Assembly: GCF_900182555.1 (NCBI RefSeq)
Contig: NZ_FXTH01000003.1
Location: 186,001 to 250,000, forward strand
Direction: 5' to 3'
Source: Fodinibius sediminis
GTDB lineage: Bacteria > Bacteroidota > Rhodothermia > Balneolales > Balneolaceae
DNA length: 64,000 nucleotides
Shown here: one piece after another, positions 28,801-58,389 of the stretch
Numbering within the stretch: position 1 is the first letter of the stretch
How the letters are laid out: the number at the start of each line of letters is the position of its first letter
Translations under genes and position numbers: made by a program
The notes under the pieces: generated by a model
The model's input: only the letters and a program-made list of their open reading frames with translations
Databases searched by the model: none
Told to the model about the DNA's origin: nothing

Positions 28801-29919
28801 TCAGGCACTGTAATTGGGGTCAAAAATTTCAGGATCTTCCGGTCCTTCGACAATGATATCTCCCATCATGCCTTTGTTGGCTACCCGGCTGAGCGCATGG
28901 TCCACAAGGTGTACGGTAGAGGCTACGGGAAAATCCATTTCAAAAATTCCGCAGCTTCCCGGAGGAACCAGGGCTGTTTGTACAAAACGCTCGGGATTGC
29001 TGGCAATAGCACCTTCGCGCCAGGTTTTCGTCCAGACGTTCCCGATCGGGTGGAAGCTGGAAGACAGGTTGGGACCTCCATTTACAAAGAAGATCCGGGC
29101 CTTTTCTCCTTTTTTAACTTTGAGGGCACCACGCCGATTGGCCGTGATGGCCTGCTTTTCTCCATTCAACAATACGTATTGGGGCGTTTCCTTCCGCATG
29201 TCTTCGAAGTTGAATTCATGCATCCCCTTTTCGCCGGCCAGCTGCTGGGAGTATATTTCATTTTGGCCAAAGTAGAATTCGTGGTCGACTTCGGGTAGTC
29301 CTTCTTCGGGTTCAACCAGCATCATTCCATACATGCCGCTGCTGATGTGATAGTCCATGCGCGGTACGGCACAGTGATAGATATAAGCACCGGGATACAT
29401 TGCTTTAAACTTGATTGTCTGGGATTGTCCAGGGGTGACGAAGGTTGCTTCTGCCCCTCCCCCCGTACCGTAGACTGAGTGGAAATCTACATTGTGCAAC
29501 AGTACGTTTTCTGGTGCTGACTTATGGGTCAGGATCACCGTATCGCCCTGGCGTACCCGGATAAAGGGTCCCGGTACCTGGCCTCCGAACGTCAGGTAGT
29601 GAAACTGCACTCCGTCTTCGATCTCACTGATTACTTCACGGCTGACCAGCTCAATTTCATGGGTTTTAGGAGTATTTCTTCGGATGGGCCCGGGAATAGC
29701 AGTTGGATCCGCTGCAATACGGTCAACTTCAACAGCGGAAGAGGCCGTTGTATCTGTTTTTGGCGATGCTGCAGCTGCAGCCCTGGCATTCAGTGAAAAG
29801 CCAGTGCCCGCCATGATGCTTCCCGTGAGCATGGCCCCGCCGATGTTTTTCATAAATTGTTTGCGGGATACACCGGTGGAGCTATTTGATTGCCGACTAT
29901 AGTTTTTTCGTGATTTCAT
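28801..29919 (-). CDS. nirK: Copper nitrite reductase NirK, two-domain type (copy 2)
   Basis: A second periplasmic nitrite-to-NO reductase, 372 residues, without a heme domain. The N-terminus has a Tat-like signal (SRKQFMKNIGGAML followed by a hydrophobic core and ARA), unlike the Sec lipoprotein signal of the first copy; the twin is RK rather than RR. Type 1 copper ligands: His142, Cys183, His191, Met196. Type 2 ligands: His147, His182, His341. Catalytic Asp145 and His290 are kept (LHNVDFHSVYG, YHCAVPRMDYHISSGM, SSFHPIG, LVDHALS). It is followed by an azurin gene and preceded by a small secreted protein gene whose promoter holds two Rrf2-type boxes. Confidence 0.94.
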   Translation of the reverse strand: MKSRKNYSRQSNSSTGVSRKQFMKNIGGAMLTGSIMAGTGFSLNARAAAAASPKTDTTASSAVEVDRIAADPTAIPGPIRRNTPKTHEIELVSREVISEIEDGVQFHYLTFGGQVPGPFIRVRQGDTVILTHKSAPENVLLHNVDFHSVYGTGGGAEATFVTPGQSQTIKFKAMYPGAYIYHCAVPRMDYHISSGMYGMMLVEPEEGLPEVDHEFYFGQNEIYSQQLAGEKGMHEFNFEDMRKETPQYVLLNGEKQAITANRRGALKVKKGEKARIFFVNGGPNLSSSFHPIGNVWTKTWREGAIASNPERFVQTALVPPGSCGIFEMDFPVASTVHLVDHALSRVANKGMMGDIIVEGPEDPEIFDPNYSA

Positions 29920-30033: not shown

Positions 30034-30405
30034 TTAGCTCCAGCGGGGCGGTGGGGGATTGGGCAGGTAAGTCGGGTTCGTGACGTCCTTTCCCTTCGCG
30101 GGGAACAGCGACCAGGTGTGGGGAAAGACCATTGGGGAGGGAATTTCTGAAATCTGCAGAGCAAGGGGATAATAGTCCACATCCAATAAGTCCTGCTGGT
30201 CATTTTCCTTATCCCCGGTCGTACACCTTTGCCCGATCGTACAGCAGATCTTTGTCCCGGAATGCCCGTCCTCACAAAAATCTTCGGTAATCAGCTCAAT
30301 GAGGCTGCCCTCGTAAAGCTGATATTCGATCATTGGCAGGACCGGCTGCAGGGCGCCGATCAGAAAAGACCAAAGTAGTATGACTGAGTATATTTTTTTC
30401 ATCAA
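30034..30405 (-). CDS. Small secreted cysteine-containing protein of unknown function
   Basis: Not recognised. The 123 residues begin with a signal peptide (KKIYSVILLWSFLIGALQPV). The mature part has a compact cysteine group, EDFCEDGHSGTKICC and IGQRCTTG (four Cys within ~22 residues), and a Pro-rich C-terminus ending NPPPPRWS. The pattern resembles small Bacteroidota proteins found near copper genes, but I cannot name a family. It lies 114 bases upstream of nirK2 on the same strand and just downstream of two palindromic boxes, so it is probably the first gene of the nirK2 unit. A copper-binding or export-assisting role is a guess. Confidence 0.6.
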   Translation of the reverse strand: MMKKIYSVILLWSFLIGALQPVLPMIEYQLYEGSLIELITEDFCEDGHSGTKICCTIGQRCTTGDKENDQQDLLDVDYYPLALQISEIPSPMVFPHTWSLFPAKGKDVTNPTYLPNPPPPRWS

Positions 30406-30423: not shown

Positions 30424-30445
30424 TTTAAGACTACTTTATCTTAAA
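30424..30445. promoter_or_regulatory. NO-regulon box, proximal copy (nirK2 unit)
   Basis: TTTAAGA (30424-30430), eight bases CTACTTTA, TCTTAAA (30439-30445). The 7-base arms are perfect. It lies 19-40 bases before the start at 30405. Same motif as in front of the Rrf2 gene and ric. Confidence 0.7.
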
Positions 30446-30498: not shown

Positions 30499-30518
30499 AT
30501 AAGATGAAGATGTCTTAA
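30499..30518. promoter_or_regulatory. NO-regulon box, distal copy (nirK2 unit)
   Basis: ATAAGA (30499-30504), eight bases TGAAGATG, TCTTAA (30513-30518). One mismatch in the left arm. Centre-to-centre distance to the proximal box is about 74 bases, about seven helical turns. Confidence 0.55.
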
Positions 30519-34676: not shown

Positions 34677-35810
34677 ATGATGAAGTTTACAAAGTACACG
34701 ACAGCCATTCTGGTAGGTCTGTTGTTGCTGGCTGCCGGTGGACTTGTCAGTGGACTTTATGCAGGACTGCTGCGTCTTGGATTTTCGGCTCCGGTGACCG
34801 CTTATCCTGTTTCTCCTGTTGCCCACGGTCCTCTCATGATCAATGGTTTCCTGGGAACGCTGATTGGAGTCGAGCGTGCGGCCGCCCTGGATAAAAAATG
34901 GGCCTATGCTGCACCGGTGTTTATCGCTCTTTCAACCCTGTTGATGCTGACCGGATATCAGCAGCCGGGGCGCTGGCTGATGATGCTCGGTTCGATTGGA
35001 TTAACAGGCGTCATGATCTATTTGTATTACCTGCAACCCAAAATATATCATCTGATCATGGCAGCCGGGGCGGCCTCACTTGCTGTCGGCAACACAGCTT
35101 TTTTGTTTCATTATCCCGTTTATGTTTTCGTGGCTTGGTGGGCTGCCTTTCCCATGCTTACCATTTTCGGAGAACGGCTGGAGCTGAATCGTATTATGCG
35201 TCCCCCCGAAAAAGCCCGTAAATTGTTTGGGCTGTTGATATTCTTGTGGATATTGGCGCTTGTTACAACGCACGTTGACCGTGACGCCGGGTGGAGGCTG
35301 GCCTCGCTTTTATTGATGGTCATTGCCGCCTGGCTTATCAGATATGACGTGGCCCGGCGTACAATTAAGGCAGCGGGATGGACGCGTTACAGCGCCATTA
35401 GTCTGCTCACGGGCTACGGCTGGCTTATTGCTGGTGGTTTGTTTGGGATCTGGCGGGGATTTCCGACAGCGGGTCCGATCTATGATGCCTTGTTGCACAT
35501 GATTTTTGTGGGATTCGTATTCAGCATGATTTTTGCGCATGCTTCGGTGATTATTCCCTCACTTTCTGGGAAACTGGTGGCTTATCACAACTATTTTTAT
35601 CTGCCGCTGATACTGCTTCATCTATTTTTAGTGTTTCGGGTGATGGGTGATTTAGCATGGTGGCCGGCCGTGCGAAAAGCAGGAAGCTACGGTAACATCG
35701 TTGCTATCCTGCTATTCCTGGGCGGTATTGCTGTACGGCTGATCACGACTACAGCTGCATCCCGCCGGGAAACGGCAGCACGGGTATTAGAAACAGTGAA
35801 TAATCCATGA
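34677..35810 (+). CDS. NnrS-like polytopic membrane protein
   Basis: A 377-residue inner-membrane protein with about 11-12 helices. Histidines occur in membrane positions: VAHGPLMINGFLGTLIGVER in helix 2, IYHLIMAAGAASLA, and LLHMIFVGFVFSMIFAHASV near the C-terminus. The last segment resembles NnrS, a heme- and copper-containing membrane protein of NO-stress regulons, although overall identity is too low for a firm name. It ends a plus-strand series beginning with fdxA (79 bases after the MIP18-like gene). Confidence 0.6.
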   Translation: MMKFTKYTTAILVGLLLLAAGGLVSGLYAGLLRLGFSAPVTAYPVSPVAHGPLMINGFLGTLIGVERAAALDKKWAYAAPVFIALSTLLMLTGYQQPGRWLMMLGSIGLTGVMIYLYYLQPKIYHLIMAAGAASLAVGNTAFLFHYPVYVFVAWWAAFPMLTIFGERLELNRIMRPPEKARKLFGLLIFLWILALVTTHVDRDAGWRLASLLLMVIAAWLIRYDVARRTIKAAGWTRYSAISLLTGYGWLIAGGLFGIWRGFPTAGPIYDALLHMIFVGFVFSMIFAHASVIIPSLSGKLVAYHNYFYLPLILLHLFLVFRVMGDLAWWPAVRKAGSYGNIVAILLFLGGIAVRLITTTAASRRETAARVLETVNNP

Positions 35811-37147: not shown

Positions 37148-37639
37148 ATGTATTACCTTTCTGTATTTATTCATCTGCTGTCTGCGTTTTTTTGGATTGG
37201 GGGAATGCTCTTCACGGCGGGTGTGCTGGTACCGGCCACGCGCGATAAATTATTGAGAAACAAAAAGGGAGCCTTTTTTGCCCTTGTGGGAGAAAAGTTC
37301 AGCCGTATCTCCTGGGTGTTGTTTATTGTTCTCATAATCACGGGGGTCACGAATCTGATCACAAGAGGATATGCTGCTGATCAGCTTCTCAGAGGGTCTT
37401 TCTGGACCGAAGTATTCGGGGGCAACCTCTTTATAAAACTACATCTTTTTGCCCTGGTCTTAATCGTAAGCGGGGTCCATGACTTTTATGCAGGTCCCAA
37501 AGCCGTGACCCTGCTGGATACAGAGCCCGACAGTCCAAGGACGGATAAAATGCGGAAAATGTCGAGTTGGCTGGGACGCCTGAACTTGCTGCTGGGTTTG
37601 GGGATTCTCTACTATGCCATGCGACTGCTGAGAGGATGA
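37148..37639 (+). CDS. CopD-like four-helix membrane protein
   Basis: A 163-residue inner-membrane protein with four helices. The first (YYLSVFIHLLSAFFWIGGML) and the third (LFIKLHLFALVLIVSGVHDF) contain His residues at positions seen in the CopD/copper-export domain and in cytochrome b561-like proteins, so heme or copper binding is likely. It converges on the minus-strand seven-gene operon (18 bases between stops). Similar proteins occur in Bacteroidota denitrifiers, but their function is not established. Confidence 0.65.
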   Translation: MYYLSVFIHLLSAFFWIGGMLFTAGVLVPATRDKLLRNKKGAFFALVGEKFSRISWVLFIVLIITGVTNLITRGYAADQLLRGSFWTEVFGGNLFIKLHLFALVLIVSGVHDFYAGPKAVTLLDTEPDSPRTDKMRKMSSWLGRLNLLLGLGILYYAMRLLRG

Positions 37640-37657: not shown

Positions 37658-38065
37658 TTATTTATTATAGCTGACAGCCCGCTGCCAATGCAGGGCTATA
37701 AACAGGATGACGGCCAGCACTTCAAGCAAGCGGCCCAGGACAATGGCTGTTGAAGGCAAAATGTTCATAAAGGAGAATACATTTACTAAGATGCCCGCAT
37801 TGAATATGATCACCATGATCCTGGCCGTCGTGGGATTTCCCCTGGCTGTCCCCTTGAGGTAGCGGGGCAGAATCCAGTAGGCGGTGCCCATGGTCAGCTG
37901 GATGATCCAGCCGAAAATACTCATTTCGATATGAATGGGCAGCAGCGACCATACCGAGGAGTAGGACGGATAGGCCTTGCTGATAAGTATGGCGGCCCCG
38001 ATTATGAAACCGGCAAGCAGGTAGACGAGCGAGGCTCGGATCATCCATCGGCTGACTGTGGGCAT
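37658..38065 (-). CDS. Four-helix heme-copper-oxidase-like membrane protein A
   Basis: A 135-residue protein with four predicted helices, last gene of the seven-gene operon. The second helix reads PIHIEMSIFGWIIQLTMG followed by AYWILPRYLKG. This GWIxQxxxGxxxWxxP pattern is shared with the next gene upstream and resembles a fragment of CcoN/NorB-type subunit I. The His in PIHIEM could be a heme or metal ligand. It starts 34 bases after the end of the paralog. Too short for an oxidase; an electron-transfer or NO-binding subunit is possible. Confidence 0.6.
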   Translation of the reverse strand: MPTVSRWMIRASLVYLLAGFIIGAAILISKAYPSYSSVWSLLPIHIEMSIFGWIIQLTMGTAYWILPRYLKGTARGNPTTARIMVIIFNAGILVNVFSFMNILPSTAIVLGRLLEVLAVILFIALHWQRAVSYNK

Positions 38066-38099
38066 GCGATTGGAAAGTTTTCAGTTCAAAATAGTTGTT

Positions 38100-38585
38100 T
38101 CAATTTGTACGTTCCCGGTTTGGTTTCTGCCTGTCGGCTTTCCTGCGTTTTCGCTTCTTTTTACGCTGTTCCCGCCGCTGCTGCTTCGATTGTATGCGGG
38201 GCCAGAGTTCTACGGTGTAGGTAACAGCAGCTGCAGCCTGGCTGCATGCCGAAAGAATGATGAGCAGATTCCAGACGGGGCTCTCCGAGAGGTAGTTCAG
38301 GGGTTCTGCCACGACGCGGAGCAGTAATCCGGTATTTAACAGGATGTAGGTAAACCAGCCCCATTTTTGGACCCAGAACCCCTCGCTGCGGTTTCGGCCC
38401 GGAAACATCCACATGGACACGCCGAAGATGATCTGTGTTATCCACCCTACCATCAGAAGATGCCAGAAGAGGGGCTCCATACCGGGCAGGGGCAGCCATT
38501 GAAAAGCCATAAAGAGCCCCAGAAGCAGGGACAACATAAAACAGACAAGACCGGTTTTGACAAATGCCCGTGCTAATCTTGGCAT
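38100..38585 (-). CDS. Four-helix heme-copper-oxidase-like membrane protein B
   Basis: A 161-residue paralog of the preceding protein. The second helix reads LFWHLLMVGWITQIIFG followed by SMWMFPGRNRSEG, again with GWIxQxxxGxxxWxxP and a His just before it. Four helices are followed by a very basic tail (about residues 135-161, rich in Lys, Arg and Gln). Its start overlaps the DUF3565 gene by 13 bases. The pair A/B may form a heterodimer with heme, an inference from paired His and shared topology. Confidence 0.6.
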   Translation of the reverse strand: MPRLARAFVKTGLVCFMLSLLLGLFMAFQWLPLPGMEPLFWHLLMVGWITQIIFGVSMWMFPGRNRSEGFWVQKWGWFTYILLNTGLLLRVVAEPLNYLSESPVWNLLIILSACSQAAAAVTYTVELWPRIQSKQQRREQRKKKRKRRKADRQKPNRERTN

Positions 38586-38794
38586 GGTAATATGAAATCT
38601 TTGGGTTCGTCGCGGTCACATTTTTTACAGTTCAGCTTTTGGCCCAGCCTGCTTTCGCGTCCTCCAGCCGTGGTGACCCAGGGACGGAGTGTCCAAGGCG
38701 GGTTATGGCGTACATGCTGTTGATGGCCGCACCGCAGTTCTGCAACCCAGCAATCTTCCTCATCTTTGTGATAACCAATAATCGGTTGTTTCAT
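38573..38794 (-). CDS. DUF3565 small Cys/His protein
   Basis: About 73 residues from ATG at 38794 (the frame opens at 38854). It matches DUF3565: IIGYHKDEEDCWVAELRCGH followed by QHVRHNPPW and a C-terminal LNCKKCDRDEP. The four cysteines and several histidines suggest a zinc- or heme-binding domain. It overlaps the cytochrome c prime gene by 4 bases and the membrane protein B gene by 13 bases. DUF3565 proteins are often found with hemoglobins and NO-response genes; the biochemistry is undetermined. Confidence 0.8.
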   Translation of the reverse strand: MKQPIIGYHKDEEDCWVAELRCGHQQHVRHNPPWTLRPWVTTAGGRESRLGQKLNCKKCDRDEPKDFILPCQD

Positions 38795-39258
38795 TTGGAT
38801 TGTTTGCTGTCTTGCCGGGCTGAGGAGATGGGGGTCCGGAAGGCCGTATGACAATCAACGCATCCACGCTGCACAATGGCATAATGCTGCAGGACCTTCT
38901 GCATGTTTTCTTGGATGGCGGCGATTCTCATGGAGTCGGCGTGGTGGTGGACAATCATGTCATACTCAACAAATTGTTTCATCTCGTCTCCCAGGGTTGA
39001 CTTTACCAGCTGTTTGTCTTCCGGTGTCATGGTCGGATGATTGGAAATATTTCCACCAGCCTCTTTAATCATGTCGTAATTTTCAGTGTAGAGGCCCCGG
39101 TCAGCCTGCTGCATATCGGTCAACAGCTGCTGCATCATGGGCACCAGGGGCATGGTTTCTGGTTGGGAGTTCGCTTTTTGGGTTGAATGACTCCATCCGA
39201 GGAGAAAGAGTGCCGATGCACCGAGCATCGTGGCAAGAACAAGTAAATGTCGCATCAT
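38791..39258 (-). CDS. Cytochrome c prime-like secreted protein
   Basis: A 155-residue exported helical protein. A signal peptide (LVLATMLGASALFLLGW) is followed by a four-helix-type sequence rich in Met and Gln, and a single heme site near the C-terminus, QRGCVDCHTAFR. A C-terminal CxxCH after long helices is the layout of class II cytochromes (cytochrome c prime), which bind NO. The His-rich segment DMIVHHHADSM is unusual. It overlaps its neighbours by 4 bases on each side, in an operon with a truncated hemoglobin. Confidence 0.7.
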   Translation of the reverse strand: MMRHLLVLATMLGASALFLLGWSHSTQKANSQPETMPLVPMMQQLLTDMQQADRGLYTENYDMIKEAGGNISNHPTMTPEDKQLVKSTLGDEMKQFVEYDMIVHHHADSMRIAAIQENMQKVLQHYAIVQRGCVDCHTAFRTPISSARQDSKQSK

Positions 39259-39452
39259 GATGGGTTTTCTTTTAATGTTTTCTCCAGATCGATCTGTTGG
39301 ATGGCACTGATGGCAGCTTCCATAGCCCCTTCGCTGCAGAGACCGCTCATTGAGGCATTGTTGAAACCTTCGCGGGCGGCTTTGATGCAGGCCGAGCGAA
39401 TTTTCCGGGCTGTTTCCAGATCTGACGGTTTAACAGGGTTCTCGTTATTCAT
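39255..39452 (-). CDS. 65-residue protein of unknown function
   Basis: Not recognised. A small helical, soluble protein (central stretch ARKIRSACIKAAREGFNNAS, then MSGLCSEGAMEAAISAIQQI) with two cysteines and no signal peptide. It overlaps the cytochrome c prime gene by 4 bases and the hemoglobin gene by 4 bases, so it is a translated member of the operon. The conserved-looking SGLCSEGA motif could bind a thiol partner or a cofactor. Confidence 0.6.
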   Translation of the reverse strand: MNNENPVKPSDLETARKIRSACIKAAREGFNNASMSGLCSEGAMEAAISAIQQIDLEKTLKENPS

Positions 39453-39844
39453 GGCTGTTTTTCATTAGTATGGTTGAATTTGCCTTCCATCTCCATGCGA
39501 ATGGAAAATGAAGAGGCTATCTTGCGGGCCATTTCCTTGGCATAATCGGCCCGCTCTCCGCTGAAATGCTGGTCGACGGTGTCTTCAAACAGTTCAAGCC
39601 AGCGTCCAAAATCCTCTTGTTCAAGGGGCAGGGGGAGGTGCTGACGAAAAGGCCGCCCCTTGTAACGCCGGGTTTGAAACAGGAGATTGGACCAGAAATC
39701 TACCATCCTGGGAAGGTGATGATCCCAGTCTACCCCGGCTACGTCGTTGAAGATATAACCCAGGCGTTCATCCTGTTCAACGTTATTGTAGAAATTGTGT
39801 ACCAGCGTCTTTACATCGTTGTCATCTCGAATGTCATGCATCAT
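39449..39844 (-). CDS. Truncated hemoglobin, group III
   Basis: A 131-residue globin that binds O2 or NO. The group III pattern is seen: B-helix Tyr19 in FYNNVEQDERLGYIF, the segment LPRMVDFWSNLLFQTRRYKG, the proximal histidine in RQHLPLP (His69), and FGRWLELFEDTVDQHF. The gene overlaps the upstream membrane-protein gene by 11 bases and the downstream 65-residue gene by 4 bases. Group III globins of other bacteria protect from or modulate nitrosative stress, and the operon promoter carries an Rrf2-type box. Confidence 0.88.
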   Translation of the reverse strand: MMHDIRDDNDVKTLVHNFYNNVEQDERLGYIFNDVAGVDWDHHLPRMVDFWSNLLFQTRRYKGRPFRQHLPLPLEQEDFGRWLELFEDTVDQHFSGERADYAKEMARKIASSFSIRMEMEGKFNHTNEKQP

Positions 39845-41099
39845 AATGAGGGTTAGGGTTCTTTTCGATTTGGATAATTTTAATCCACTGTGCCGTTACA
39901 GCCAGGGCAGGCAGAAGCGCTGTCGCCGCAGCAGCATAGAAAACCCAGGGGCCGCTCCATCTGACAGGCCAAAATGAAGTGAGCGGCAGCAGGCTGAGCA
40001 GCATGAGCAGAACAGTGACCGCGATACCAGAGAAATACCTGCCCGGAATACTGGCTTTAACGGAAAGCCAGCCCGTCATGGTCAATGTGAATGCCCCCAG
40101 CAGTAAAACATGCAGGTAAAAAATCCGGAGTGCGTGATCGGAAAACAGGAATGAGGATGGAATAAAGGATGCACCCATCTGCATGAGGGCTTTGAGTGCC
40201 AGCAGTGCAACCGGCCAGACCCAGGGACTTTTTTTCCACGGGCTACTGGATATAATAACATACAGCGCCTGGAATAGTCCGAAGGCTGCTAATAAACCAC
40301 CCAGGCGTGCTGTCCAAAGCAGGGTTGGCGACAACAGGGATTCTGATATGCCATAGGGAAAAGTGAGCGGAGCCCCGATGGCTATGCATCCCAGCGAAAC
40401 ATGGTGTGATATTGGCCAGTTCTTCTGGCCGATTGAAAATTTTGCCACCAGGATAGCGAGCAGCGCCAGCACGATCCAGCCCTCCGTGAATGCCGCCAGG
40501 AAGAAATGGGTCATTCCCTTCATGAGCAGGTGATTATTTGGTGCCAGGGCCTGAACTACAGCAACACTCCACGCGCCGAGGGAACTGATCAGCAACAGGA
40601 TTTGCGCACTGTCAAACCAGGATTGACAGGGTTCCCCATCAAGCAAGGAGCGCCTTTTCAAGTAGCCTCCCATGAAAATATACCAGCAGATCATCACCAT
40701 TCCGGACAATATGACCGATAAAGGCAGGGAAAGCGTTCCGATGGCTACCGGGCGATAGCCGAAAATTAGAAAAAAAGGATAGGAGGCCATACCAAAAAAC
40801 AGCGTTCCGAACAGGGCATATTTCATCCATGGCGTGCCCCTTTCCTGCCGGCCTGAAACACTCATAATCTGGCTGCGCATGATATAAAGAGGGAGGGGAA
40901 CGGCCCACCCAAAGAACATCAGGTGGGAGTGGGCATGGCGGATATTTCCGAGCGAAAGCCCCCATTCGGGCAGCCAGCCGATGAGTCCCAGCCGGTAAAC
41001 AAGGCCGGTGAGCGCTGCGAGGATAAAAGAAACCACCGACACCTGCCATAACCAGCGCTCCTCCTTCAACCCGTTGTATTTTACTTGCATCCGGTACAA
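39834..41099 (-). CDS. Heme-copper/NnrS-like polytopic membrane protein
   Basis: A 421-residue inner-membrane protein with about 12 helices, first gene of the seven-gene operon. Helix 2 has a striking histidine cluster, NIRHAHSHLMFFGWAVPLPL; further His occur in MKGMTHFFLAAFTEGWIVL, PISHHVSLG and FYLHVLLLGAFTLTMTGWL. The layout recalls subunit I of cbb3 oxidases/NO reductase and also NnrS, but the usual binuclear-centre residues cannot be placed confidently. The start lies 52 bases after the palindromic box at 41152-41171. NO or O2 chemistry is likely, but catalysis is unproven. Confidence 0.6.
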   Translation of the reverse strand: MYRMQVKYNGLKEERWLWQVSVVSFILAALTGLVYRLGLIGWLPEWGLSLGNIRHAHSHLMFFGWAVPLPLYIMRSQIMSVSGRQERGTPWMKYALFGTLFFGMASYPFFLIFGYRPVAIGTLSLPLSVILSGMVMICWYIFMGGYLKRRSLLDGEPCQSWFDSAQILLLISSLGAWSVAVVQALAPNNHLLMKGMTHFFLAAFTEGWIVLALLAILVAKFSIGQKNWPISHHVSLGCIAIGAPLTFPYGISESLLSPTLLWTARLGGLLAAFGLFQALYVIISSSPWKKSPWVWPVALLALKALMQMGASFIPSSFLFSDHALRIFYLHVLLLGAFTLTMTGWLSVKASIPGRYFSGIAVTVLLMLLSLLPLTSFWPVRWSGPWVFYAAAATALLPALAVTAQWIKIIQIEKNPNPHYDA

Positions 41100-41151: not shown

Positions 41152-41171
41152 TTAAGAGTGCTATGTCTTAA
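41152..41171. promoter_or_regulatory. NO-regulon box before the seven-gene hemoglobin operon
   Basis: TTAAGA (41152-41157), eight bases GTGCTATG, TCTTAA (41166-41171): perfect arms. It is 53-72 bases before the operon start at 41099 and about 130 bases before the divergent BP74-domain gene. Confidence 0.7.
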
Positions 41172-41767: not shown

Positions 41768-43177
<1,410 letters not shown>

Positions 43178-43226: not shown

Positions 43227-45047
43227 TCAAGAGGATGTTACCAGGCATTGGGTTTCAAGCTGTTCAAGCAAGCGATTAAGACGCTTCTGCTGCTCCCGTA
43301 CGGTGGGAGGAATGGAAGCAAGATTTTCATCCCGGTAAGGATCTGTCTGGGCAATATCAAGGCAGTAAGCCATCCCCTTTTCCAGGTTGTTCTTGAATTT
43401 TTTCAGTTTCCTGAGGGTACCCTTGCTGCCGTCACTTTGTGCTACAAGATCTTCAAAGTAATCAACATAGAGTACGATTTCCTTGGCAAACATATGGGGG
43501 CGTTCGGCAGGCACAAGCGAAGGACATCGTCCGTAAATATGGTCCACCATCTCCCGAAGCGAGTATTCGCCATCGAAAAAGGCAATATTGGGCCCCGGAC
43601 AGATGGCCTGGGGGGCACGATGTTCGGCCAGGATACCCAGGTCGATGAGGGCCCCGTTGCCCAGGTGGTCGCACAGGCAGGCTTTCCCAAGAACTTTTTC
43701 GCGTTCCTTCTCTTTCTGTTCTTCTGCCATTTCGCTCTGGGCGATTTGGTCCAGCTTCAGCAGCTGGTATTGATTGGAAGCCGTACAGATGGGCTGCTCC
43801 GTAAATTCGGTATTCGCTTCCAGGAATCCCTTCGGACAGGGCGACCCGGGCTTGTCTTTTGCAATTCGTTTCTTGTGCCACTGTTCTGATCCGGTATTTC
43901 GTACATTGTTGAACGGTACGCCCAGAGGTGACACACCACTAAGGTATAGGTCCTTTTCCCTGGCATTTTCAAGGAGTCTTCTCGTCGGCTGGTCTACCGT
44001 TGTAGCCTCGGGGACCAGCAGAAATGGGCTGCCCCAGCCTGTGGCATCCATGTCAAAATCCTGGAGCAGGCGGTGGGCTTCACCGCTTACACCAATACCC
44101 CCCTGCACCGTAAGCCGTGGTTCTTGAATATCCCAGTCGGCAGAAAACCCATTGCGCTCCTTGTCGTAGTATTTGTCAATCAGCGGCTGGACCGCGGTAG
44201 ATAACTGATCCCTATTTTCGCGAAATTCCTTTAAGAGGCTCGGTAACAGGAATCCATCGGAGGCGAAGGCATGCCCTCCGCAATTCAATCCCGATTCGAT
44301 ACGGTATTCAAAAACTTCCAATCCTTTTTTTGCCAGGTACTTGCCCTGGATCAGCGCCGATCGGAAGTCACTTACTTTCAGGATGATTTTCTTCTTAATG
44401 TCCCCCCTGGTATCCCGGTAAAAATCCTTGAATTCAGTCAGATAATTGTAGAGCCGGGGGTTAAAGCCGGCAGAAAGAATCAGACTGGAGGAAAGGGAGC
44501 TTTTTGCATAGCCTCGCAGCGCCGCACTGGCATCACTGAATTCCTGGCTCATCGGCATGCCGCCTTTGGTATAGTTGATCTTATCCACCTTGGCCATGAT
44601 ATTTATATCAATGGAGCCGGGCTGCATCAGCCGCGACAGCTCCGACGACAGGCGATCGCGAAGGCTGCCCTTGTCAGTATGCATCAGCTGATTGTATTTC
44701 TTCTTGAGCTCATGACTATCGGGCAGGAGTTCGAAATATTTGGTCTTGTCATTTTTCTCAAAGAACGGCTGGTTTCTGATGCGTTCAAACTTGTTCTGGA
44801 CAATCTTTTGAACTGTATCCAGGTAGGCGGTGATACGCCGGGCCCGCCCGTCCTCGGCATTGCGCGCAATATTCTTGTAGGGGAAATCAAATTTCCGGCA
44901 GTAGTGCTTGCGGATCCGTTCTACCAGGAGATCGTCGACCACGGAAATGACCGAATTAATGCCATAGGGCCCCACCCGGATCGGTGAGTCGATAGAATGG
45001 CCGGTCCCCATGACGGGAATGGAAAAATCGTGGAGAAAGTTTAGCAT
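43227..45047 (-). CDS. Conserved 606-residue protein of unknown function
   Basis: Not assigned. A large soluble protein without signal peptide or membrane helix. Stretches such as GLNCGGHAFASDGFLLPSLL and TVQGGIGVSGEAHRLLQDFD recall the flavin-binding TIM barrels of nitronate monooxygenase and glutamate synthase, so a FMN-dependent TIM barrel over about residues 150-350 is possible. Cysteine motifs occur later (GSPCPKGFLEANTEF, KACLCDHLGNGALIDLGI, AICPGPNIAFFDG) and could bind an Fe-S cluster. The C-terminal ~100 residues are helical and charged. It lies 63 bases after ric and 55 bases before the phenol-lyase on the same strand. Confidence 0.7.
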   Translation of the reverse strand: MLNFLHDFSIPVMGTGHSIDSPIRVGPYGINSVISVVDDLLVERIRKHYCRKFDFPYKNIARNAEDGRARRITAYLDTVQKIVQNKFERIRNQPFFEKNDKTKYFELLPDSHELKKKYNQLMHTDKGSLRDRLSSELSRLMQPGSIDINIMAKVDKINYTKGGMPMSQEFSDASAALRGYAKSSLSSSLILSAGFNPRLYNYLTEFKDFYRDTRGDIKKKIILKVSDFRSALIQGKYLAKKGLEVFEYRIESGLNCGGHAFASDGFLLPSLLKEFRENRDQLSTAVQPLIDKYYDKERNGFSADWDIQEPRLTVQGGIGVSGEAHRLLQDFDMDATGWGSPFLLVPEATTVDQPTRRLLENAREKDLYLSGVSPLGVPFNNVRNTGSEQWHKKRIAKDKPGSPCPKGFLEANTEFTEQPICTASNQYQLLKLDQIAQSEMAEEQKEKEREKVLGKACLCDHLGNGALIDLGILAEHRAPQAICPGPNIAFFDGEYSLREMVDHIYGRCPSLVPAERPHMFAKEIVLYVDYFEDLVAQSDGSKGTLRKLKKFKNNLEKGMAYCLDIAQTDPYRDENLASIPPTVREQQKRLNRLLEQLETQCLVTSS

Positions 45048-45110: not shown

Positions 45111-45830
45111 TTAGTGCAGTGTTCGTTCCAGTTCCAAAGCTTTTGGAAAGAGGATGTTATTTTCGAGATGCACATGCTTGTGCAGGTCTTTTTCAAAACC
45201 GGCAAGGTTTTCGAACAGGACCCGGTAGGTGGCACAGGCATCCTCGGGGGGCGTGAAGTTATTGCTGAGGCGACGGATTTTCGCCATGGAAGCTCCGGCT
45301 TCGTCATGTTCTTCCTCCATCATCGAGATGGGATCAGCCGCCATTCCGAAGTTGTCTATATCGGCTTTTGTGCCTTTTTCCTTGGCTTCCAACAGCTTGT
45401 TAATGTAGGGAAAAAGAATACGCTCCTCTTTCTCAAGGTGATTCAGAATTTCGGAATGCATGATTGAAAATTCCTGGTTGATCTGCAGCAGCTCAGGGTG
45501 ACGCTGTCCATGTACCTTGGCCACTTTATGGGCATAAGCCGCTATCTCGGGTAGTTTGTTCCTCGTAAATTTATGGTGGTTATTGACAATATAATCGATC
45601 AGAAAATCCAGGGACCATTGATTGTAATTGTGCTGTTCGACACCATTTTTCTTCAGTCCCTGCAGTGCTTTTTTTACGTCCAGCGGGTCAATGTTTTTGT
45701 CGACGGCGGCTTCTTCAATGGTTTTATTTCCCCCGCAGCAGAAATCGAGGCCAAAGTTTCGGAAGACCTGAGCCGCGCGGTAGTCATTGGCTACAATTTG
45801 TCCAACAGTTTGTGTTTGCAAAGTTTCCAT
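45111..45830 (-). CDS. ric: Iron-sulfur cluster repair protein Ric (YtfE/ScdA)
   Basis: Diiron hemerythrin-like protein of 239 residues that repairs NO-damaged Fe-S clusters. The ScdA_N domain (about 1-60) has VGQIVANDYRAAQVFRNFGL and the CC motif DFCCGGN. The hemerythrin domain supplies iron ligands in VNNHHKFTRNKLPE, IMHSEILNHLEKEERILFPY, MEEEHDEAG and KHVHLENNILFPKA. A perfect TTAAGA-N8-TCTTAA box is 47 bases upstream, as for NsrR-regulated ytfE genes elsewhere. The unknown 606-residue gene follows. Confidence 0.94.
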   Translation of the reverse strand: METLQTQTVGQIVANDYRAAQVFRNFGLDFCCGGNKTIEEAAVDKNIDPLDVKKALQGLKKNGVEQHNYNQWSLDFLIDYIVNNHHKFTRNKLPEIAAYAHKVAKVHGQRHPELLQINQEFSIMHSEILNHLEKEERILFPYINKLLEAKEKGTKADIDNFGMAADPISMMEEEHDEAGASMAKIRRLSNNFTPPEDACATYRVLFENLAGFEKDLHKHVHLENNILFPKALELERTLH

Positions 45831-45876: not shown

Positions 45877-45898
45877 ATTAAGACTATTTTGTCTTAAT
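45877..45898. promoter_or_regulatory. NO-regulon box before ric
   Basis: ATTAAGAC (45877-45884), TATTTT, GTCTTAAT (45891-45898): perfect 8-base arms, the best example of the motif in the window. It starts 47 bases before the ric start and overlaps the last codons of the heme A synthase gene. Confidence 0.78.
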
Positions 45899-51136: not shown

Positions 51137-51928
51137 TTAGAAATCCTTTTTCTTGAAAAGCTGAACGCTTCGCCACAGGGGCAGCCCCAGCCATATCATC
51201 AGGCAGCCTGCCGCTACGCTCATGCCGAGCATGCTTCCGAAGAAGCGGCTAAATACGGCTCCGGTATATCCCATGAGGGCCGAAACATCAAAATTGAGCA
51301 ATACCGTTATACGGGCCAGATCGATTGGGTTGATCAAGGCGAGAGCAAGCATGGGTTTTTCAATAGGGTAATCGCCAAAGGTGACGATGGTCAGCAGGAC
51401 AAGCCCGTCGTAGAGTATAGCCAGGAAAAGCCAGCTGACAAGGGCAAATCCAAGGCCTTTGATACGGTCATTGAAGAATGCAAGTGCGAGCCAGAAACCA
51501 AGCCCGGTAAACAGCAGGGTTAAAACATTGCCGAGTACCAGTACCAGGAGAACGGACACTATCGGAGAAGTGGCTATGATGCCGCTGTAGAGCATGGGAA
51601 GTCCAACACCCAGGCTGAATGCCAGGGCCAGGGGCATGGCTACGCCGCCGAACAGTCCCCAGAACAGGGTCCTGCGGTTGAGGGGCTGCGCCAGCAGCAG
51701 TTCCGTAAATTCGCGCGATTGATACAGATACAAAGCCCCGTAAATCATGCCAACCAGCGGGATCAAAAGCAACATCACATTAGCAATACTGAGCATTGCT
51801 TTGGGGCCCGTGCCTCCAAAGCGGATCATGGCATCAGCAACTAACAGGTAGATGAGCCCGTAACCAATAATCCACTTTCCACGAAAGAGGTCCTTCCATT
51901 GGTATTTTAAAATGGTCAGTGTTTTCAT
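51137..51928 (-). CDS. nosY: NosY, ABC-2 type permease of the nitrous oxide reductase maturation system
   Basis: Membrane component of the NosFY transporter required for copper-centre assembly of NosZ. The 263 residues form six helices (for example IGYGLIYLLVADAMIRFGG, MLLLIPLVGMIYGALYLY, PIVSVLLVLVLGNVLTLLF). The sequence QSREFTELLLAQPLNRRTLF between helices 2 and 3 is typical of NosY. It overlaps nosF by 4 bases. It is the last nos gene; hemN follows 100 bases on. Confidence 0.92.
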   Translation of the reverse strand: MKTLTILKYQWKDLFRGKWIIGYGLIYLLVADAMIRFGGTGPKAMLSIANVMLLLIPLVGMIYGALYLYQSREFTELLLAQPLNRRTLFWGLFGGVAMPLALAFSLGVGLPMLYSGIIATSPIVSVLLVLVLGNVLTLLFTGLGFWLALAFFNDRIKGLGFALVSWLFLAILYDGLVLLTIVTFGDYPIEKPMLALALINPIDLARITVLLNFDVSALMGYTGAVFSRFFGSMLGMSVAAGCLMIWLGLPLWRSVQLFKKKDF

Positions 51929-52635
51929 GCCGTTACCTCTTCCATCATTTTAGCTACAGCTTCTTCGAGTCGTTGCTCTTTCTGTTTTTCGATAAGTTCT
52001 TTCATGGGGCCGTGATATCTGATCCTGCCTTCCACGATAAAGATCAGGTAATCAGCCAACTCCTCAATTTCGCTCATGATATGCGAAGTGAGAAGAATCG
52101 TTTTTCCTGCTTCCTTTTCTCTATGGACCAGTTTTTTGAATTGAACGCTCGCCCTGGGGTCCAGGCCTGCCGTTGGCTCATCGAAAATCAAAATCCGGGG
52201 ATCAAACATCATAGCCAGCACAGCTCCCACTTTCTGACGGGTCCCACCAGAGAGTGTACGCATTCTTTTGTCCAGCTCGGGTTCCAGGTCGAAATATTCG
52301 ATGAGTTTTGCTTTGTTGTCAGTCGGATTTCCGCGGACCTCACTGATAAATTCAAAGAGCTCATTGACAGACATGTTTTCTGGATATCGGGCAGTTTGTG
52401 GCATATAGCCAATATTTTGCCTGTACTGCCACTGTCCCTGTACCGATTCACCGTCAATATAAATAGCCCCTTCCGTTGGCTTAACCAGTCCGAGCAGCGC
52501 TTTGATGGTGGTGGTTTTTCCAGATCCGTTGGGCCCCACAATGCCGGTGGCCCGGCCGGAAGGGAGTTCAAGATGTATATTATCAAGTACGGTACGGGGA
52601 CCAAAATCTTTCCTCAATCCTTTTATGGTAATCAT
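51925..52635 (-). CDS. nosF: NosF, ABC ATPase of the nitrous oxide reductase maturation system
   Basis: A 236-residue ATPase that powers NosY. Walker A GPNGSGKTTTIKALLG, Q-loop YMPQTARYPENM, signature LSGGTRQKVGAVLAM, Walker B ILIFDEPTAGLDP and the switch His in TSHIMSEIEE are all present. The C-terminal tail with KELIEKQKEQRLEEAVAKMM is coiled-coil-like. It overlaps nosD by 4 bases and nosY by 4 bases. Confidence 0.95.
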   Translation of the reverse strand: MITIKGLRKDFGPRTVLDNIHLELPSGRATGIVGPNGSGKTTTIKALLGLVKPTEGAIYIDGESVQGQWQYRQNIGYMPQTARYPENMSVNELFEFISEVRGNPTDNKAKLIEYFDLEPELDKRMRTLSGGTRQKVGAVLAMMFDPRILIFDEPTAGLDPRASVQFKKLVHREKEAGKTILLTSHIMSEIEELADYLIFIVEGRIRYHGPMKELIEKQKEQRLEEAVAKMMEEVTA

Positions 52636-53876
52636 AGTATTTTGGTCATTTTGGGTTGGGAGTCAATAAGGGTTTCCGGGGTAAGCACCGGCATAAATTT
52701 TTCCGCCGCATCCAGTATGTCGATAAGCAAACTTCGCAGCAGAAGCAGTGACGGCGGATGTTTTTCCACGATAATGGAGAAAAGCCGGACAGGCCGGTGA
52801 GGCACATCGCCTATGCCGTCTTTGTCGAGGTCATATCCTTCATACTGACTCCAGTAGTTGTTATCAAAGGCGTTGTAATTTTGACGACTGTTGGTCGATA
52901 TCTCAAAGGAGTTCGCAATGAAATTGTTTTCAGTGAAGCGGTTATCGGTGGAGTTGGCCATCAGTTTTATAGCCCATCCATTTTGTCGAAAGCTGTTCTT
53001 TTTGATGCTGTTTCGGCTTGTTGCCTCGATATACAGGCCGACGGAGTTATTGACAAATTCATTTCCCTCGATTTGGCTGCGGTTTATTTCTTTCAGTAGC
53101 ATGCCGTAGGCCGAGGATCCCCAGTTGTCTTCAAATCGATTGTTGATGATTTCAACGTTCTGGGTATACATTACGGCGACGCCTCCTCCATTGTCACGGA
53201 AGGTGTTGCCCTCGTAGCGACAGTTGTCGGAATACATAAAGTGGATGCCATACCGGATATTGTGTTCACTGACGTTGCCGGAAATGGTAGCGCCTTCCAC
53301 AAATTCAAAGTAGAGACCGTCGCGGTGCCCCTCCACATAGTTGCCTTGAATATCTATGTCTTTGGAGTACCAGAGATGAATGCCATTGCCGGAGGAAGTT
53401 TCGCGTCCTCCGGAGGCGGTTATATGGTTGTCTTTGATCAATGCATTGGATGATTTTGCCAGGTATATTCCAAAGAAATTATCTGTCAGTGTGACGTTCT
53501 CTATGACGGTGTTATTGGTGTTTTCAACCAGGATACCGGCATAATCTTCCATAAAGCTGGTGCTGGCATGTCGTACTTCTATATTTTTTACGGTCACATC
53601 ATCAGCAGTGATGACAAGCACAAATCCTTTACGGTTTCCGTCAATTACGACCTGCCCCTCACCGATGATCGTCAGGGGCTTGTCTACCGTGATATCATAT
53701 TCATCGTAGTGCCCTTCCTTGAGGACCAGCGTGTCGCCGGAACTGGCCAGGGCAATTCCTTCTTTGACCGAAGAAACCGGACCATTGGGTGCGACCGTTA
53801 GCTGCCGGGCCGAAACAAGCTGGACCTGTGACACCATCCATAGTATTAATGCTGCTATATTTAAAAACGCTCTCAT
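52632..53876 (-). CDS. nosD: NosD, periplasmic beta-helix copper-assembly protein
   Basis: A 414-residue secreted parallel beta-helix that works with NosFY in NosZ copper-site maturation. Signal peptide FLNIAALILWMVSQVQLVSA; the helix starts with LTVAPNGPVSSVKEGIALAS. Many right-handed turns follow with the N-x-I/F ladder, for example AGILVENTNNTVIENVTLTD, FGIYLAKSSNALIKDNHITA and GIHFMYSDNCRYEGNTFRDN. The end has DFDNNYWSQYEGYDLDKDG-like sequence (YWSQYEGYDLDKDGIGDVP), conserved in NosD. It overlaps nosF by 4 bases. Confidence 0.94.
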   Translation of the reverse strand: MRAFLNIAALILWMVSQVQLVSARQLTVAPNGPVSSVKEGIALASSGDTLVLKEGHYDEYDITVDKPLTIIGEGQVVIDGNRKGFVLVITADDVTVKNIEVRHASTSFMEDYAGILVENTNNTVIENVTLTDNFFGIYLAKSSNALIKDNHITASGGRETSSGNGIHLWYSKDIDIQGNYVEGHRDGLYFEFVEGATISGNVSEHNIRYGIHFMYSDNCRYEGNTFRDNGGGVAVMYTQNVEIINNRFEDNWGSSAYGMLLKEINRSQIEGNEFVNNSVGLYIEATSRNSIKKNSFRQNGWAIKLMANSTDNRFTENNFIANSFEISTNSRQNYNAFDNNYWSQYEGYDLDKDGIGDVPHRPVRLFSIIVEKHPPSLLLLRSLLIDILDAAEKFMPVLTPETLIDSQPKMTKIL

Positions 53877-53907
53877 ATCCTCAATTCCTTTTTAGATGCC
53901 GACTCTG

Positions 53908-54354
53908 TTACAGTTGGATCCGGGATACCTCCTGCCAGGTCAGGAGGTTACCGGGCTTTTCTGACACATGATTTTCTGCTTCAGCTTTGGAGGGAAAGGC
54001 CAGCAGAGATTCTCCCATGGGACTTCTGACAACCTCGCTTTTTACAAATTGGGCCTCCCTGGCATTCAGCCATTGACCGGGTTGGTCGTAATTACTGACA
54101 TAGAATAGGGCACCGGAAAGTTCTTCCTGGTTTTGCTGCCGGTAGGCCACCATGCATTCAATAGCGTCGAACTTGTAGGCTTTTCCCTTTTCAGTGACCA
54201 GCTGGGAAGCAAACTGATTATCCGTGATCATCATTTTGCAGTGAACACATTCATCACTGCCGTAATGAATTTCTGCCGGCTCCTGGCTACAAGCCACGAA
54301 TAGCACGCTGGTGATGGTCAGCAGCAGGATGCGCATGGTTGATATTTTTTCCAT
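53908..54354 (-). CDS. nosL: NosL copper chaperone lipoprotein
   Basis: Outer-leaflet Cu(I) chaperone for NosZ. The frame opens at 54393, but ATG at 54354 gives a clean lipoprotein signal (MRILLLTITSVLFVACSQEP); about 148 residues. The metal-binding motif CVHCKMMITDNQFASQL matches the NosL CxxCxM signature, and the C-terminal part SPMGESLLAFPSKAEAENHV is also conserved. It follows the membrane-protein gene by 56 bases and precedes nosD by 31 bases. Confidence 0.92.
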   Translation of the reverse strand: MEKISTMRILLLTITSVLFVACSQEPAEIHYGSDECVHCKMMITDNQFASQLVTEKGKAYKFDAIECMVAYRQQNQEELSGALFYVSNYDQPGQWLNAREAQFVKSEVVRSPMGESLLAFPSKAEAENHVSEKPGNLLTWQEVSRIQL

Positions 54355-54410
54355 AATGATTACCTCAATCCTTTTTTTGGGCATCCAATCCAATGATGCC
54401 TTTTGTTACT

Positions 54411-54980
54411 TTACTTCTTGGAACTGGTCCACCAGACCGTTGTGGCAATGGACATCGACACTAGTGCAATATAAAATCCTATGTGTGGCAGTGAAGTGGC
54501 ATTAATGTTCAACAGCTGTTTACTGCCGATCAGTGGGGGCTGATAGGTCATACCAGGGACTTTAATAGGGGCATTGGGGTCCAGATTATGACCGTAGTCG
54601 TACCCCCAGAGATAGAAGTCGACCAGTCCCCCGATGGCGAAAAGTACAAACAGTCCCAGCCAGATCAATACCCAGGTGCGGTTGCCCCAAAGGGCAATTC
54701 CCAGGCCCGAAACGATCAGGAAGCCGAAAATATAGGGCATGATCTTTAGCTCCGGGATCGACTCTGGGGTGATCTCCTTCATGCCGATATAATGGTTCAG
54801 TCCGTTGATGTTTTGAAGGTGCTGGGGTTCCTTGCCTTCAATGTTATTGACAGAAATATTCATGCCCATGCCCTCGGGGTACTGCGGGGCCTCCATGCTG
54901 ATACTCCATATGGGGAAGAAATACACCAGGATGAGTATCAGGGACGCAACGGCCATTGCTATTCGGTGGTTTGATTTCAT
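54411..54980 (-). CDS. nos-operon integral membrane protein
   Basis: A 189-residue protein with four helices: IAMAVASLILILVYFFPIW, IMPYIFGFLIVSGLGIALWG, WVLIWLGLFVLFAIGGLVDF and LPHIGFYIALVSMSIATTVWW. A periplasmic loop after helix 1 has MEAPQYPEGMGMNISVNN and HLQNINGLNHYIGMK, with His and Met that may bind copper or heme. Proteins of this type sit between nosZ and nosL or nosD in clade II nos operons of Bacteroidota, but the role is not established. It lies 83 bases after nosZ. Confidence 0.75.
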   Translation of the reverse strand: MKSNHRIAMAVASLILILVYFFPIWSISMEAPQYPEGMGMNISVNNIEGKEPQHLQNINGLNHYIGMKEITPESIPELKIMPYIFGFLIVSGLGIALWGNRTWVLIWLGLFVLFAIGGLVDFYLWGYDYGHNLDPNAPIKVPGMTYQPPLIGSKQLLNINATSLPHIGFYIALVSMSIATTVWWTSSKK

Positions 54981-55018
54981 GATTTCCTCTGTTGCAATTA
55001 GTTATTAACGTCAAAGAA

Positions 55019-55042
55019 GAAGGGAGATTTCACCCTCCCTTC
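55019..55042 (-). terminator. Hairpin after nosZ, partial terminator or mRNA stabiliser
   Basis: Perfect 8-base arms GAAGGGAG (55019-55026) and CTCCCTTC (55035-55042), 22 bases after the nosZ stop. On the minus strand it is followed by TTCTTTG, a weak T-tract, so it may lower expression of the downstream nos genes relative to nosZ. Confidence 0.5.
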
Positions 55043-55063
55043 CACGAGGATTGAGGTCGTGTG

Positions 55064-57040: not shown

Positions 57041-57084
57041 GGTATTCCTCTTTATGTATTTTTGATGTGATTTATTAGTCATTG

Positions 57085-57904: not shown

Positions 57905-58357
57905 TTATTCCCAGGTAAATTTGCCATCGGCTGTAATCCTCAGGTTCATTTTCTTTCCTTTATTGGCCATCTGTGTCAGGCTTGTAGACTCGAGCATTTC
58001 CCGAATTTCATCCCGCGTGCTGGCCCACATATCATGGAGCGGGCAGGGCTTTTCAATTCCACAGCCCGGCAGGCCCAGCGCACATTCTGTTAATAGGTCC
58101 TCCCCGTCAATGGCAATGACAATATCCAGCAGTGTTATTTCCTCACCGGATTTGGAAAGACGTACGCCCCCCTTGGGGCCCTTCAGGGATTCCATCAGAT
58201 CCACAGCCGTTAGTTGCTGAAGGATTTTAGTGAGAAAGTGAAAAGAGATATCCAGCTTTTCGCTCAGTTCCTTGATAGAGGTGTAGTTTCCATTCTGATT
58301 AGAAGCGAGCAGCAGAGTGGCCCGCAATCCATAAACACACGACTTTGATAATAACAT
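57905..58357 (-). CDS. Rrf2-family NO-sensing repressor, NsrR-like
   Basis: A 150-residue regulator with an N-terminal winged helix (about 1-80: CVYGLRATLLLASNQNGNYT, ELSEKLDISFHFLTKILQQL, KGPKGGVRLSK) and three cysteines in ECALGLPGCGIEKPCPLH (C-x6-C-x5-C), the cluster ligands of NsrR/IscR-type proteins. In NsrR, NO attacks the cluster and releases DNA. A perfect palindrome 12 bases before the start suggests autoregulation, and the same palindrome precedes ric, the nirK2 unit and the hemoglobin operon. Position next to the nos operon fits a denitrification/NO regulator. IscR is the main alternative, but no isc genes are near. Confidence 0.88.
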   Translation of the reverse strand: MLLSKSCVYGLRATLLLASNQNGNYTSIKELSEKLDISFHFLTKILQQLTAVDLMESLKGPKGGVRLSKSGEEITLLDIVIAIDGEDLLTECALGLPGCGIEKPCPLHDMWASTRDEIREMLESTSLTQMANKGKKMNLRITADGKFTWE

Positions 58358-58369
58358 GCGACAATCTAT

Positions 58370-58389
58370 TTAAGAGTAATTTGTCTTAA
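58370..58389. promoter_or_regulatory. NO-regulon box before the Rrf2 gene
   Basis: TTAAGA (58370-58375), GTAATTTG, TCTTAA (58384-58389), extendable by one more T/A pair: perfect arms. It ends 12 bases before the start codon, a repressor position, so the gene probably controls itself. Confidence 0.72.

What the first reader, a model, noticed from the sequence alone, without database searches (positions are those of the whole stretch)
37658..41099. Seven-gene overlapping operon of NO/heme proteins, possibly a new NO-handling system
From 41099 down to 37658 the genes are a 12-helix His-rich heme-copper/NnrS-like protein, a group III truncated hemoglobin, a 65-residue unknown, a cytochrome c prime-like protein, DUF3565, and two paralogous four-helix proteins. 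Five of six junctions overlap (4 to 13 bases). Two NO-binding hemoprotein types in one transcript plus the box at 41152 point to one function: scavenging, sensing or reducing NO. The membrane components lack the length of a normal NO reductase and none is seen in the window.
Basis: partly seen in the sequence, partly recalled or inferred. Interest (0 to 1): 0.8.

Follow-up and report, generated by a model that had tools for sequence, protein, structure and literature searches.

The report
Nitric-oxide operon with stripped-down oxidase relatives
A salt-loving bacterium carries a conserved seven-gene operon, apparently controlled together with its nitrite-reduction genes, that pairs two nitric-oxide-binding types of protein with three membrane proteins which look like respiratory oxidases stripped of their catalytic site, two of them being matching one-third pieces that probably share a single heme.

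Summary
The operon is real: seven genes, five of six junctions overlap (11, 4, 4, 4, 13 bases). It is conserved in the genus (Fodinibius, Balneolota): 7 of 11 other genomes have all seven genes in order, 3 more have six.

The box at 41152 is TTAAGA-N8-TCTTAA. It occurs exactly five times in the 4.43 Mb genome, four of them in this window: before this operon, RIC/ScdA, the nirK operon, and an NsrR-like Rrf2 regulator. In relatives it recurs mostly before rrf2 and RIC. This makes an NO role likely.

The "12-helix" protein has no Pfam match, but its AlphaFold model is a heme-copper oxidase subunit I fold (best hit cbb3). It keeps the two low-spin-heme histidines and lacks the TM7 His-His pair and the high-spin-heme histidine, so it is not a conventional NO reductase.

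The four-helix pair are paralogous one-third units of that fold, adjacent in 32 of 32 loci from several phyla. One always has the TM2-type histidine (37/37), the other the TM10-type (37/37). I infer one shared bis-His b heme.

Most likely role: an NO-induced protection and electron-supply module. Heme binding, NO role and electron flow are untested. A candidate NO reductase lies elsewhere in the genome; six of twelve congeners have none I could recognise.

The parts
39834..41099 (-). TM12: 12-helix heme-copper-oxidase-fold protein without a CuB/high-spin-heme site (His57, His198, His330, Tyr328 invariant)
39449..39844 (-). group III truncated haemoglobin
   Evidence: PF01152 E 3.9e-7; 2ig3 E 3.2e-16; Tyr19, His69 and Trp82 invariant
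39255..39452 (-). S65: 65-aa protein, unknown, conserved core SGLCxEGAxEAAxS
   Evidence: no family; conserved in the genus
38791..39258 (-). cytochrome c'-like mono-heme protein with an N-terminal hydrophobic segment (CVDCH)
   Evidence: PF01322 E 0.0039, sub-threshold; motif kept in orthologues
38573..38794 (-). DUF3565 protein
   Evidence: PF12088 E 2.9e-31
38100..38585 (-). H4A: four-helix one-third oxidase unit, His42 at the TM10-type low-spin-heme register (G-5)
37658..38065 (-). H4B: four-helix one-third oxidase unit, His45 at the TM2-type low-spin-heme register (G-7)
41152..41171 (.). palindromic operator-like box TTAAGA-N8-TCTTAA, 53 bases upstream of the operon
45878..45897 (.). same box, upstream of RIC/ScdA
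30425..30444 (.). same box, upstream of the gene at 30034-30405 and nirK
58370..58389 (.). same box, upstream of the Rrf2 regulator itself
57905..58357 (-). Rrf2 regulator, NsrR-like (C-x6-C-x5-C), probable box-binding repressor
   Evidence: PF02082 E 6.2e-31; Cys spacing read from the sequence
45111..45830 (-). RIC/ScdA di-iron Fe-S repair protein, same predicted regulon
   Evidence: ScdA_N and Hemerythrin
28801..29919 (-). NirK-type copper nitrite reductase, predicted NO source, same predicted regulon
   Evidence: Cu-oxidase domains; catalytic ligands not checked

Best explanation
The operon is an NO-induced protection and electron-supply module of a NirK/NosZ denitrifier. Inferred sequence of events: NO made by NirK damages the Fe-S cluster of the NsrR-like Rrf2 protein; the repressor leaves the TTAAGA-N8-TCTTAA boxes; this operon, RIC, nirK and rrf2 are switched on. 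The periplasmic cytochrome c' and the cytosolic truncated haemoglobin bind or turn over NO on the two sides of the membrane, while RIC repairs Fe-S damage. H4A and H4B form an obligate heterodimer, two of the three pseudo-repeats of a heme-copper oxidase, holding one bis-His b heme between His45 of H4B (TM2 position) and His42 of H4A (TM10 position). TM12 is a full-length version of the same fold that keeps one bis-His b heme and has lost the catalytic centre. These membrane b hemes most likely pass quinol electrons to the heme proteins of the pathway or re-reduce them. Shown here: operon, conservation, shared boxes, predicted fold, histidine registers. Inferred: Rrf2 as the binder, heme content, heterodimer, electron flow, NO turnover. 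My own odds: NO-related role about 0.8, shared b heme in the pair about 0.65, electron-transfer role about 0.35.
For: Order conserved in the genus. One genome (F. halophilus) has TM12 and globin in a single 542-aa frame. Four of the genome's five exact boxes are here, before this operon, RIC, nirK and rrf2 (binomial 2e-7); of 46 near-exact boxes in relatives and window, 18 precede rrf2 and 10 RIC. The TM12 model is an oxidase subunit I fold (cbb3 E 2.3e-6, cNOR E 3.1e-5), and TM12 is enriched in NosZ genomes (17 of 21 against 55 of 148 overall; Fisher 1.3e-5), and sits beside nosZ and RIC-Rrf2 in Bacteroidota. H4A and H4B profiles match the first third of C-family oxidases (E 2.8e-7 and 1.2e-6); the His register is invariant (37/37 each); the pair is adjacent in 32/32 loci.
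Against: No experiment shows NO or heme binding. TM12's link to oxidases rests on predicted structure; profile comparison is not significant (E 0.0085, probability 5%). For H4B alone the fold hits have E 0.05 or worse, although dominated by oxidases. Some Calditrichota loci carry the H4 pair with no denitrification genes nearby, so its function may be broader than NO. Box binding by Rrf2 is inferred from position only, and the motif differs from the published NsrR consensus. Phylogenetic relatedness inflates the NosZ association.
Confidence: 0.55

Rival explanations
1. TM12 with H4A/H4B is an unconventional NO reductase that fills the missing step between NirK and NosZ.
For: Six of twelve Fodinibius genomes (G002, G004-G008) have NirK-like proteins and NosZ but no cNOR, qNOR, eNOR-like (Gln) or Tyr-less C-family enzyme, and no flavodiiron-type hit of the expected size. 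TM12 keeps an invariant TM6 His198 and a Tyr328 at the high-spin-heme position.
Against: TM12 has no TM7 His-His pair, so two of three CuB/FeB ligands are missing, and no high-spin-heme histidine. The operon also occurs in genomes that do have a candidate NO reductase. Nitrite and N2O reducers without NOR are known, and ba3/cbb3 oxidases can reduce NO as a side reaction (general knowledge).
Confidence: 0.12
2. The H4 pair and TM12 are electron-entry or assembly factors for nitrous oxide reductase or another terminal reductase, and the globin and cytochrome c' merely share the promoter.
For: TM12 is enriched in NosZ genomes and lies 1.4-6.5 kb from nosZ in 8 distant genomes of the group; the H4 pair follows nosDFY and a CopD-like gene in L069, L074 and L078.
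Against: NosB, NosL, NosD, NosF and NosY are already present; TM12's frequent neighbours are RIC and Rrf2, which are NO-stress genes; the H4 pair occurs without nos genes nearby in several Calditrichota loci.
Confidence: 0.23
3. The module senses or buffers NO or redox state and has no electron-transfer role.
For: Two soluble heme proteins of NO-binding types, membrane proteins lacking a catalytic site, co-regulation with RIC.
Against: No signalling output domain is encoded; sensing is already provided by Rrf2.
Confidence: 0.1

Closest known systems
NnrS (PF05940), heme- and copper-containing membrane protein of NO regulons
   Same: multi-helix membrane protein found in NO-responsive regulons (PMC1274295); H4A hits its C-terminal third (E 3.4e-5, below cut-off)
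   Different: TM12 has no match to the NnrS family; H4A and H4B are separate 4-helix proteins
Heme-copper oxidase superfamily subunit I (cbb3 CcoN, cNOR NorB)
   Same: fold, low-spin heme His in TM2 and TM10 registers
   Different: no CuB/FeB site (TM7 HH absent), no high-spin heme His; H4A/H4B are one-third-size, encoded as a pair
NsrR regulon
   Same: Rrf2 regulator with Cys triad, box before its own gene, RIC (dnrN), nirK and heme-protein genes
   Different: box TTAAGA-N8-TCTTAA instead of gATGyAT-N5-ATrCATc
Group III truncated haemoglobin (PDB 2ig3)
   Same: sequence over 107 residues, heme-pocket Tyr and proximal His
   Different: encoded inside an overlapping operon and in one genome fused to TM12
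NosB of clade II nos clusters
   Same: polytopic membrane protein near nosZ
   Different: NosB in this window is a different gene (54411-54980, with LNHYIGM and YGHN motifs, PMC9697520); TM12 lacks these motifs

Membership tests
Catalytic heme-copper oxidase / NO reductase (TM12) | 12-helix subunit I fold | tested here: met
   AlphaFold pTM 0.90; Foldseek 3mk7 E 2.3e-6, 3o0r E 3.1e-5
Catalytic heme-copper oxidase / NO reductase (TM12) | three His ligands of CuB/FeB (TM6 His, TM7 His-His) | tested here: not met
   TM7 has no His; only TM6 His198 is present
Catalytic heme-copper oxidase / NO reductase (TM12) | high-spin-heme proximal His in TM10 | tested here: not met
   invariant Tyr328 occupies that register
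Catalytic heme-copper oxidase / NO reductase (TM12) | bis-His low-spin heme ligands in TM2 and TM10 | tested here: met
   His57 and His330 in register with the C-family motifs; heme binding itself not testable
Heme-copper oxidase superfamily (H4A/H4B) | profile homology to subunit I | tested here: met
   hhalign to C-family E 2.8e-7 and 1.2e-6, probability 93% and 91%; Pfam COX1 hits of the window copies lie below the cut-off
NnrS | match to PF05940 above cut-off | tested here: not met
   TM12 no hit; H4A 23.8 bits against 28
NnrS | bound heme and copper | not testable with these tools
   needs purified protein
NsrR | Rrf2 fold with three cluster cysteines | tested here: met
   PF02082 E 6.2e-31; C-x6-C-x5-C read from the sequence
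NsrR | published NsrR consensus at the target genes | tested here: not met
   the box found is TTAAGA-N8-TCTTAA
NsrR | NO-sensitive DNA binding | not testable with these tools
   needs gel shift with NO
Group III truncated haemoglobin | homology and heme-pocket residues | tested here: met
   2ig3 E 3.2e-16; Tyr19, His69, Trp82 invariant
Cytochrome c' | PF01322 match above cut-off | tested here: not met
   18.6 bits against 26.5, though CxxCH lies at the expected C-terminal place

The most novel reading that the evidence does not exclude
H4A/H4B are a split, minimal member of the heme-copper oxidase superfamily: two one-third units that assemble into a stand-alone bis-His b-type cytochrome, either a degenerate or an ancestral-like repeat unit. 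With TM12 they carry out or support a non-canonical NO-reduction step in denitrifiers that lack a recognisable NO reductase.
Probability: 0.12. Interest if true: 0.88.

Novelty: new variant of a known kind. Interest (0 to 1): 0.62.

Why it matters
Heme-copper oxidases have internal pseudo-threefold symmetry (general knowledge). A co-encoded pair of single units with complementary heme histidines would be a simple natural test of how that fold assembles around its low-spin heme. The shared box gives a testable NO regulon for Balneolota.

Tried and rejected
TM12 as NosB: rejected, NosB is the separate gene at 54411-54980 (motifs in PMC9697520). TM12 or the H4 proteins as a normal NO reductase: rejected on ligands. 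Profile-level proof that TM12 is an oxidase: hhalign against A, B and C families was not significant, so the claim rests on predicted structure plus motif register. A first H4A-H4B profile comparison shared 16 sequences between the two sides and was discarded; the cleaned one is. Ten added TM12 rows came from the longest ORF of each locus; most were wrong ORFs and were ignored, L161 and L165 being usable. Sequence searches of solved structures with TM12, H4A and H4B profiles gave nothing, nor did one with the cytochrome c'-like protein. The 65-aa protein had no relatives in plasmids; the one annotated DUF3565 plasmid context was unrelated. Literature for DUF3565 plus NO: none held.
Full report
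Setting. The window is part of a 4.43 Mb genome (G000, contig C3:186001-250000). The window is a denitrification island: NirK 28801-29919, two azurin-like proteins, DUF2249 proteins, a 377-aa NnrS-like protein 34677-35810, OsmC, a CopD-like protein 37148-37639, the operon in question, RIC/ScdA 45111-45830, heme A synthase-like and HemN genes, nosY-F-D-L-B-Z 51137-57082 and an Rrf2 regulator 57905-58357 (the nos and heme gene names come partly from my own reading of the sequences).

Observation. Overlaps are 11, 4, 4, 4 and 13 bases, with a 34-base gap before the last gene. The same order is found in relatives: complete in seven of eleven other Fodinibius genomes (L035, L037, L045, L046, L050, L051, L052), six of seven genes in three (L036 and L049 without a detected 65-aa gene, L047 without the globin), and TM12 alone in one (L048). 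In other Balneolaceae a shorter form, Rrf2 - RIC - TM12 - H4A - H4B, is common (L062, L064-L067, L071). In one genome (L036, also seen as L060, the same F. halophilus record) TM12 and the globin form one 542-aa frame, a suggestive fusion that rests on a single assembly.

Regulon. The box before the operon is TTAAGA-N8-TCTTAA at 41152-41171. Exact copies stand at 30425 (before the 123-aa gene and nirK), 45878 (RIC) and 58370 (rrf2). The whole genome has only five exact copies, four of them in this window, which is 1.4% of the genome (binomial 2e-7). With one mismatch allowed the genome-wide count is not above its reversed control (13 against 19), so the case rests on exact copies and on position. 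A one-mismatch copy precedes the second rrf2 gene on contig C18. Among the window and the loci of relatives that I scanned, 46 near-exact copies were found, of which 18 precede rrf2 and 10 RIC, others nirK, TM12 and a tryptophanase-like gene. The Rrf2 protein has a C-x6-C-x5-C triad. This resembles the NsrR regulons of proteobacteria, which hold dnrN (RIC), nnrS, nirK and heme proteins (PMC1274295), with a different operator sequence. That Rrf2 binds the box is an inference.

TM12. No Pfam or NCBIfam match. AlphaFold from 18 homologues gives pLDDT 88 and pTM 0.90 with about twelve long helices. The best solved structures are cbb3 CcoN (3mk7, E 2.3e-6, TM 0.70), then cNOR (3o0r, E 3.1e-5) and aa3/bo3 oxidases, 42 hits at E 0.001 or better. 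Invariant histidines are 55, 57, 59 in helix 2, 198 in helix 6 and 330 in helix 10. In C-family oxidases the low-spin heme His of TM2 sits seven residues before a Gly/Ala, and the two TM10 His sit at -7 (high-spin heme) and -5 (low-spin heme) before the corresponding position (ligand roles from general knowledge of cbb3). TM12 has His57 at -7 in TM2, His330 at -5 and Tyr328 at -7 in TM10, and no His in TM7. So the low-spin site is kept and the catalytic site is lost. Profile comparison alone does not show this homology (E 0.0085), though its one weak alignment does pair His57 with the oxidase TM2 His.

H4A and H4B. They are paralogues (E 5.7e-29) and both match the first third of C-family oxidases (E 2.8e-7 and 1.2e-6). 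The H4B model (pLDDT 90) resembles oxidase subunit I (probability near 1, TM 0.6-0.78, but E not below 0.05). In all 32 loci found for H4A by one pattern-based scan, H4B follows directly; these come from Balneolota, Calditrichota, Chloroflexota and Myxococcota. The helix-2 histidine is at -7 in 37 of 37 H4B and at -5 in 37 of 37 H4A sequences. These are exactly the two registers of the low-spin heme ligands in TM2 and TM10. The simplest reading is one b heme held between the two proteins.

NO reductase. The own genome has A- and B-family oxidases with the usual tyrosine, and on C18 a CcoN-like protein with HHFVF in place of HHLLY, followed by a FixO-like cytochrome c subunit and, some genes on, a second copy of OsmC, azurin, RIC, globin, S65, DUF3565, H4A and H4B, without TM12 and cytochrome c'. 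I take it as a candidate NO reductase because the cross-linked tyrosine is missing; this is not proven. It is present in five of twelve Fodinibius genomes (G000, G001, G003, G009, G011). G010 has an oxidase-like enzyme with Gln at the tyrosine position (L141), the mark given for eNOR (PMC8756737), and G003 has a similar-scoring hit that I did not read. The other six genomes have none of these, while all six have NosZ and NirK-like proteins. Flavodiiron candidates were short and mostly below the cut-off. NirK ligands were not checked.

Distribution. In 148 genomes drawn from the phylum group, TM12 is in 21 and NosZ in 55, both in 17 (Fisher 1.3e-5); H4A is in 20, 15 with NosZ (2.6e-4). These are not corrected for relatedness. 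Eight distant TM12 relatives outside the class lie 1.4-6.5 kb from nosZ, in one examined case directly beside RIC and Rrf2 (L166).

Verdict. The new point is that the membrane proteins are oxidase-fold proteins without a catalytic site, two of them one-third units with complementary heme histidines. The mechanism remains an inference.

Noticed in passing
window 43227-45047 (-): 606-aa protein with no Pfam match, 71-82% identical in relatives, often between RIC and TM12; function unknown
   Followed up: partly
window 41768-43171 (-); L037, L047, L050-L052: Tryptophanase-like beta-eliminating lyase beside the operon; in several relatives a paralogue has the same palindromic box upstream
   Followed up: partly
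L034 (G000 contig C18:53001-72000): Second, partial copy of the NO island with a CcoN-like oxidase lacking the TM7 tyrosine (HHFVF), a candidate C-family NO reductase
   Followed up: partly
L033:3875-5278 (contig C18): 467-aa oxidase-like protein with TM2, TM6 and TM10 histidines but no TM7 His-His, another possibly non-catalytic heme-copper relative
   Followed up: no
L141 (G010 C2:267474): Oxidase-like protein with Gln in place of the active-site tyrosine (GHMSQQ), eNOR-like, in a Fodinibius genome
   Followed up: partly
L024/L027 (G000 contig C21:27960-29302): Second A-family oxidase subunit I in two frames with an internal TAG: frameshifted gene or assembly error
   Followed up: no
window 34677-35810 (+): 377-aa NnrS-like protein without a significant Pfam match; helix-2 and later histidines appear in the same registers as oxidase low-spin heme ligands
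   Followed up: partly
window 30499-30518: Second, one-mismatch copy of the box 55 bases from the exact one upstream of the nirK operon
   Followed up: no
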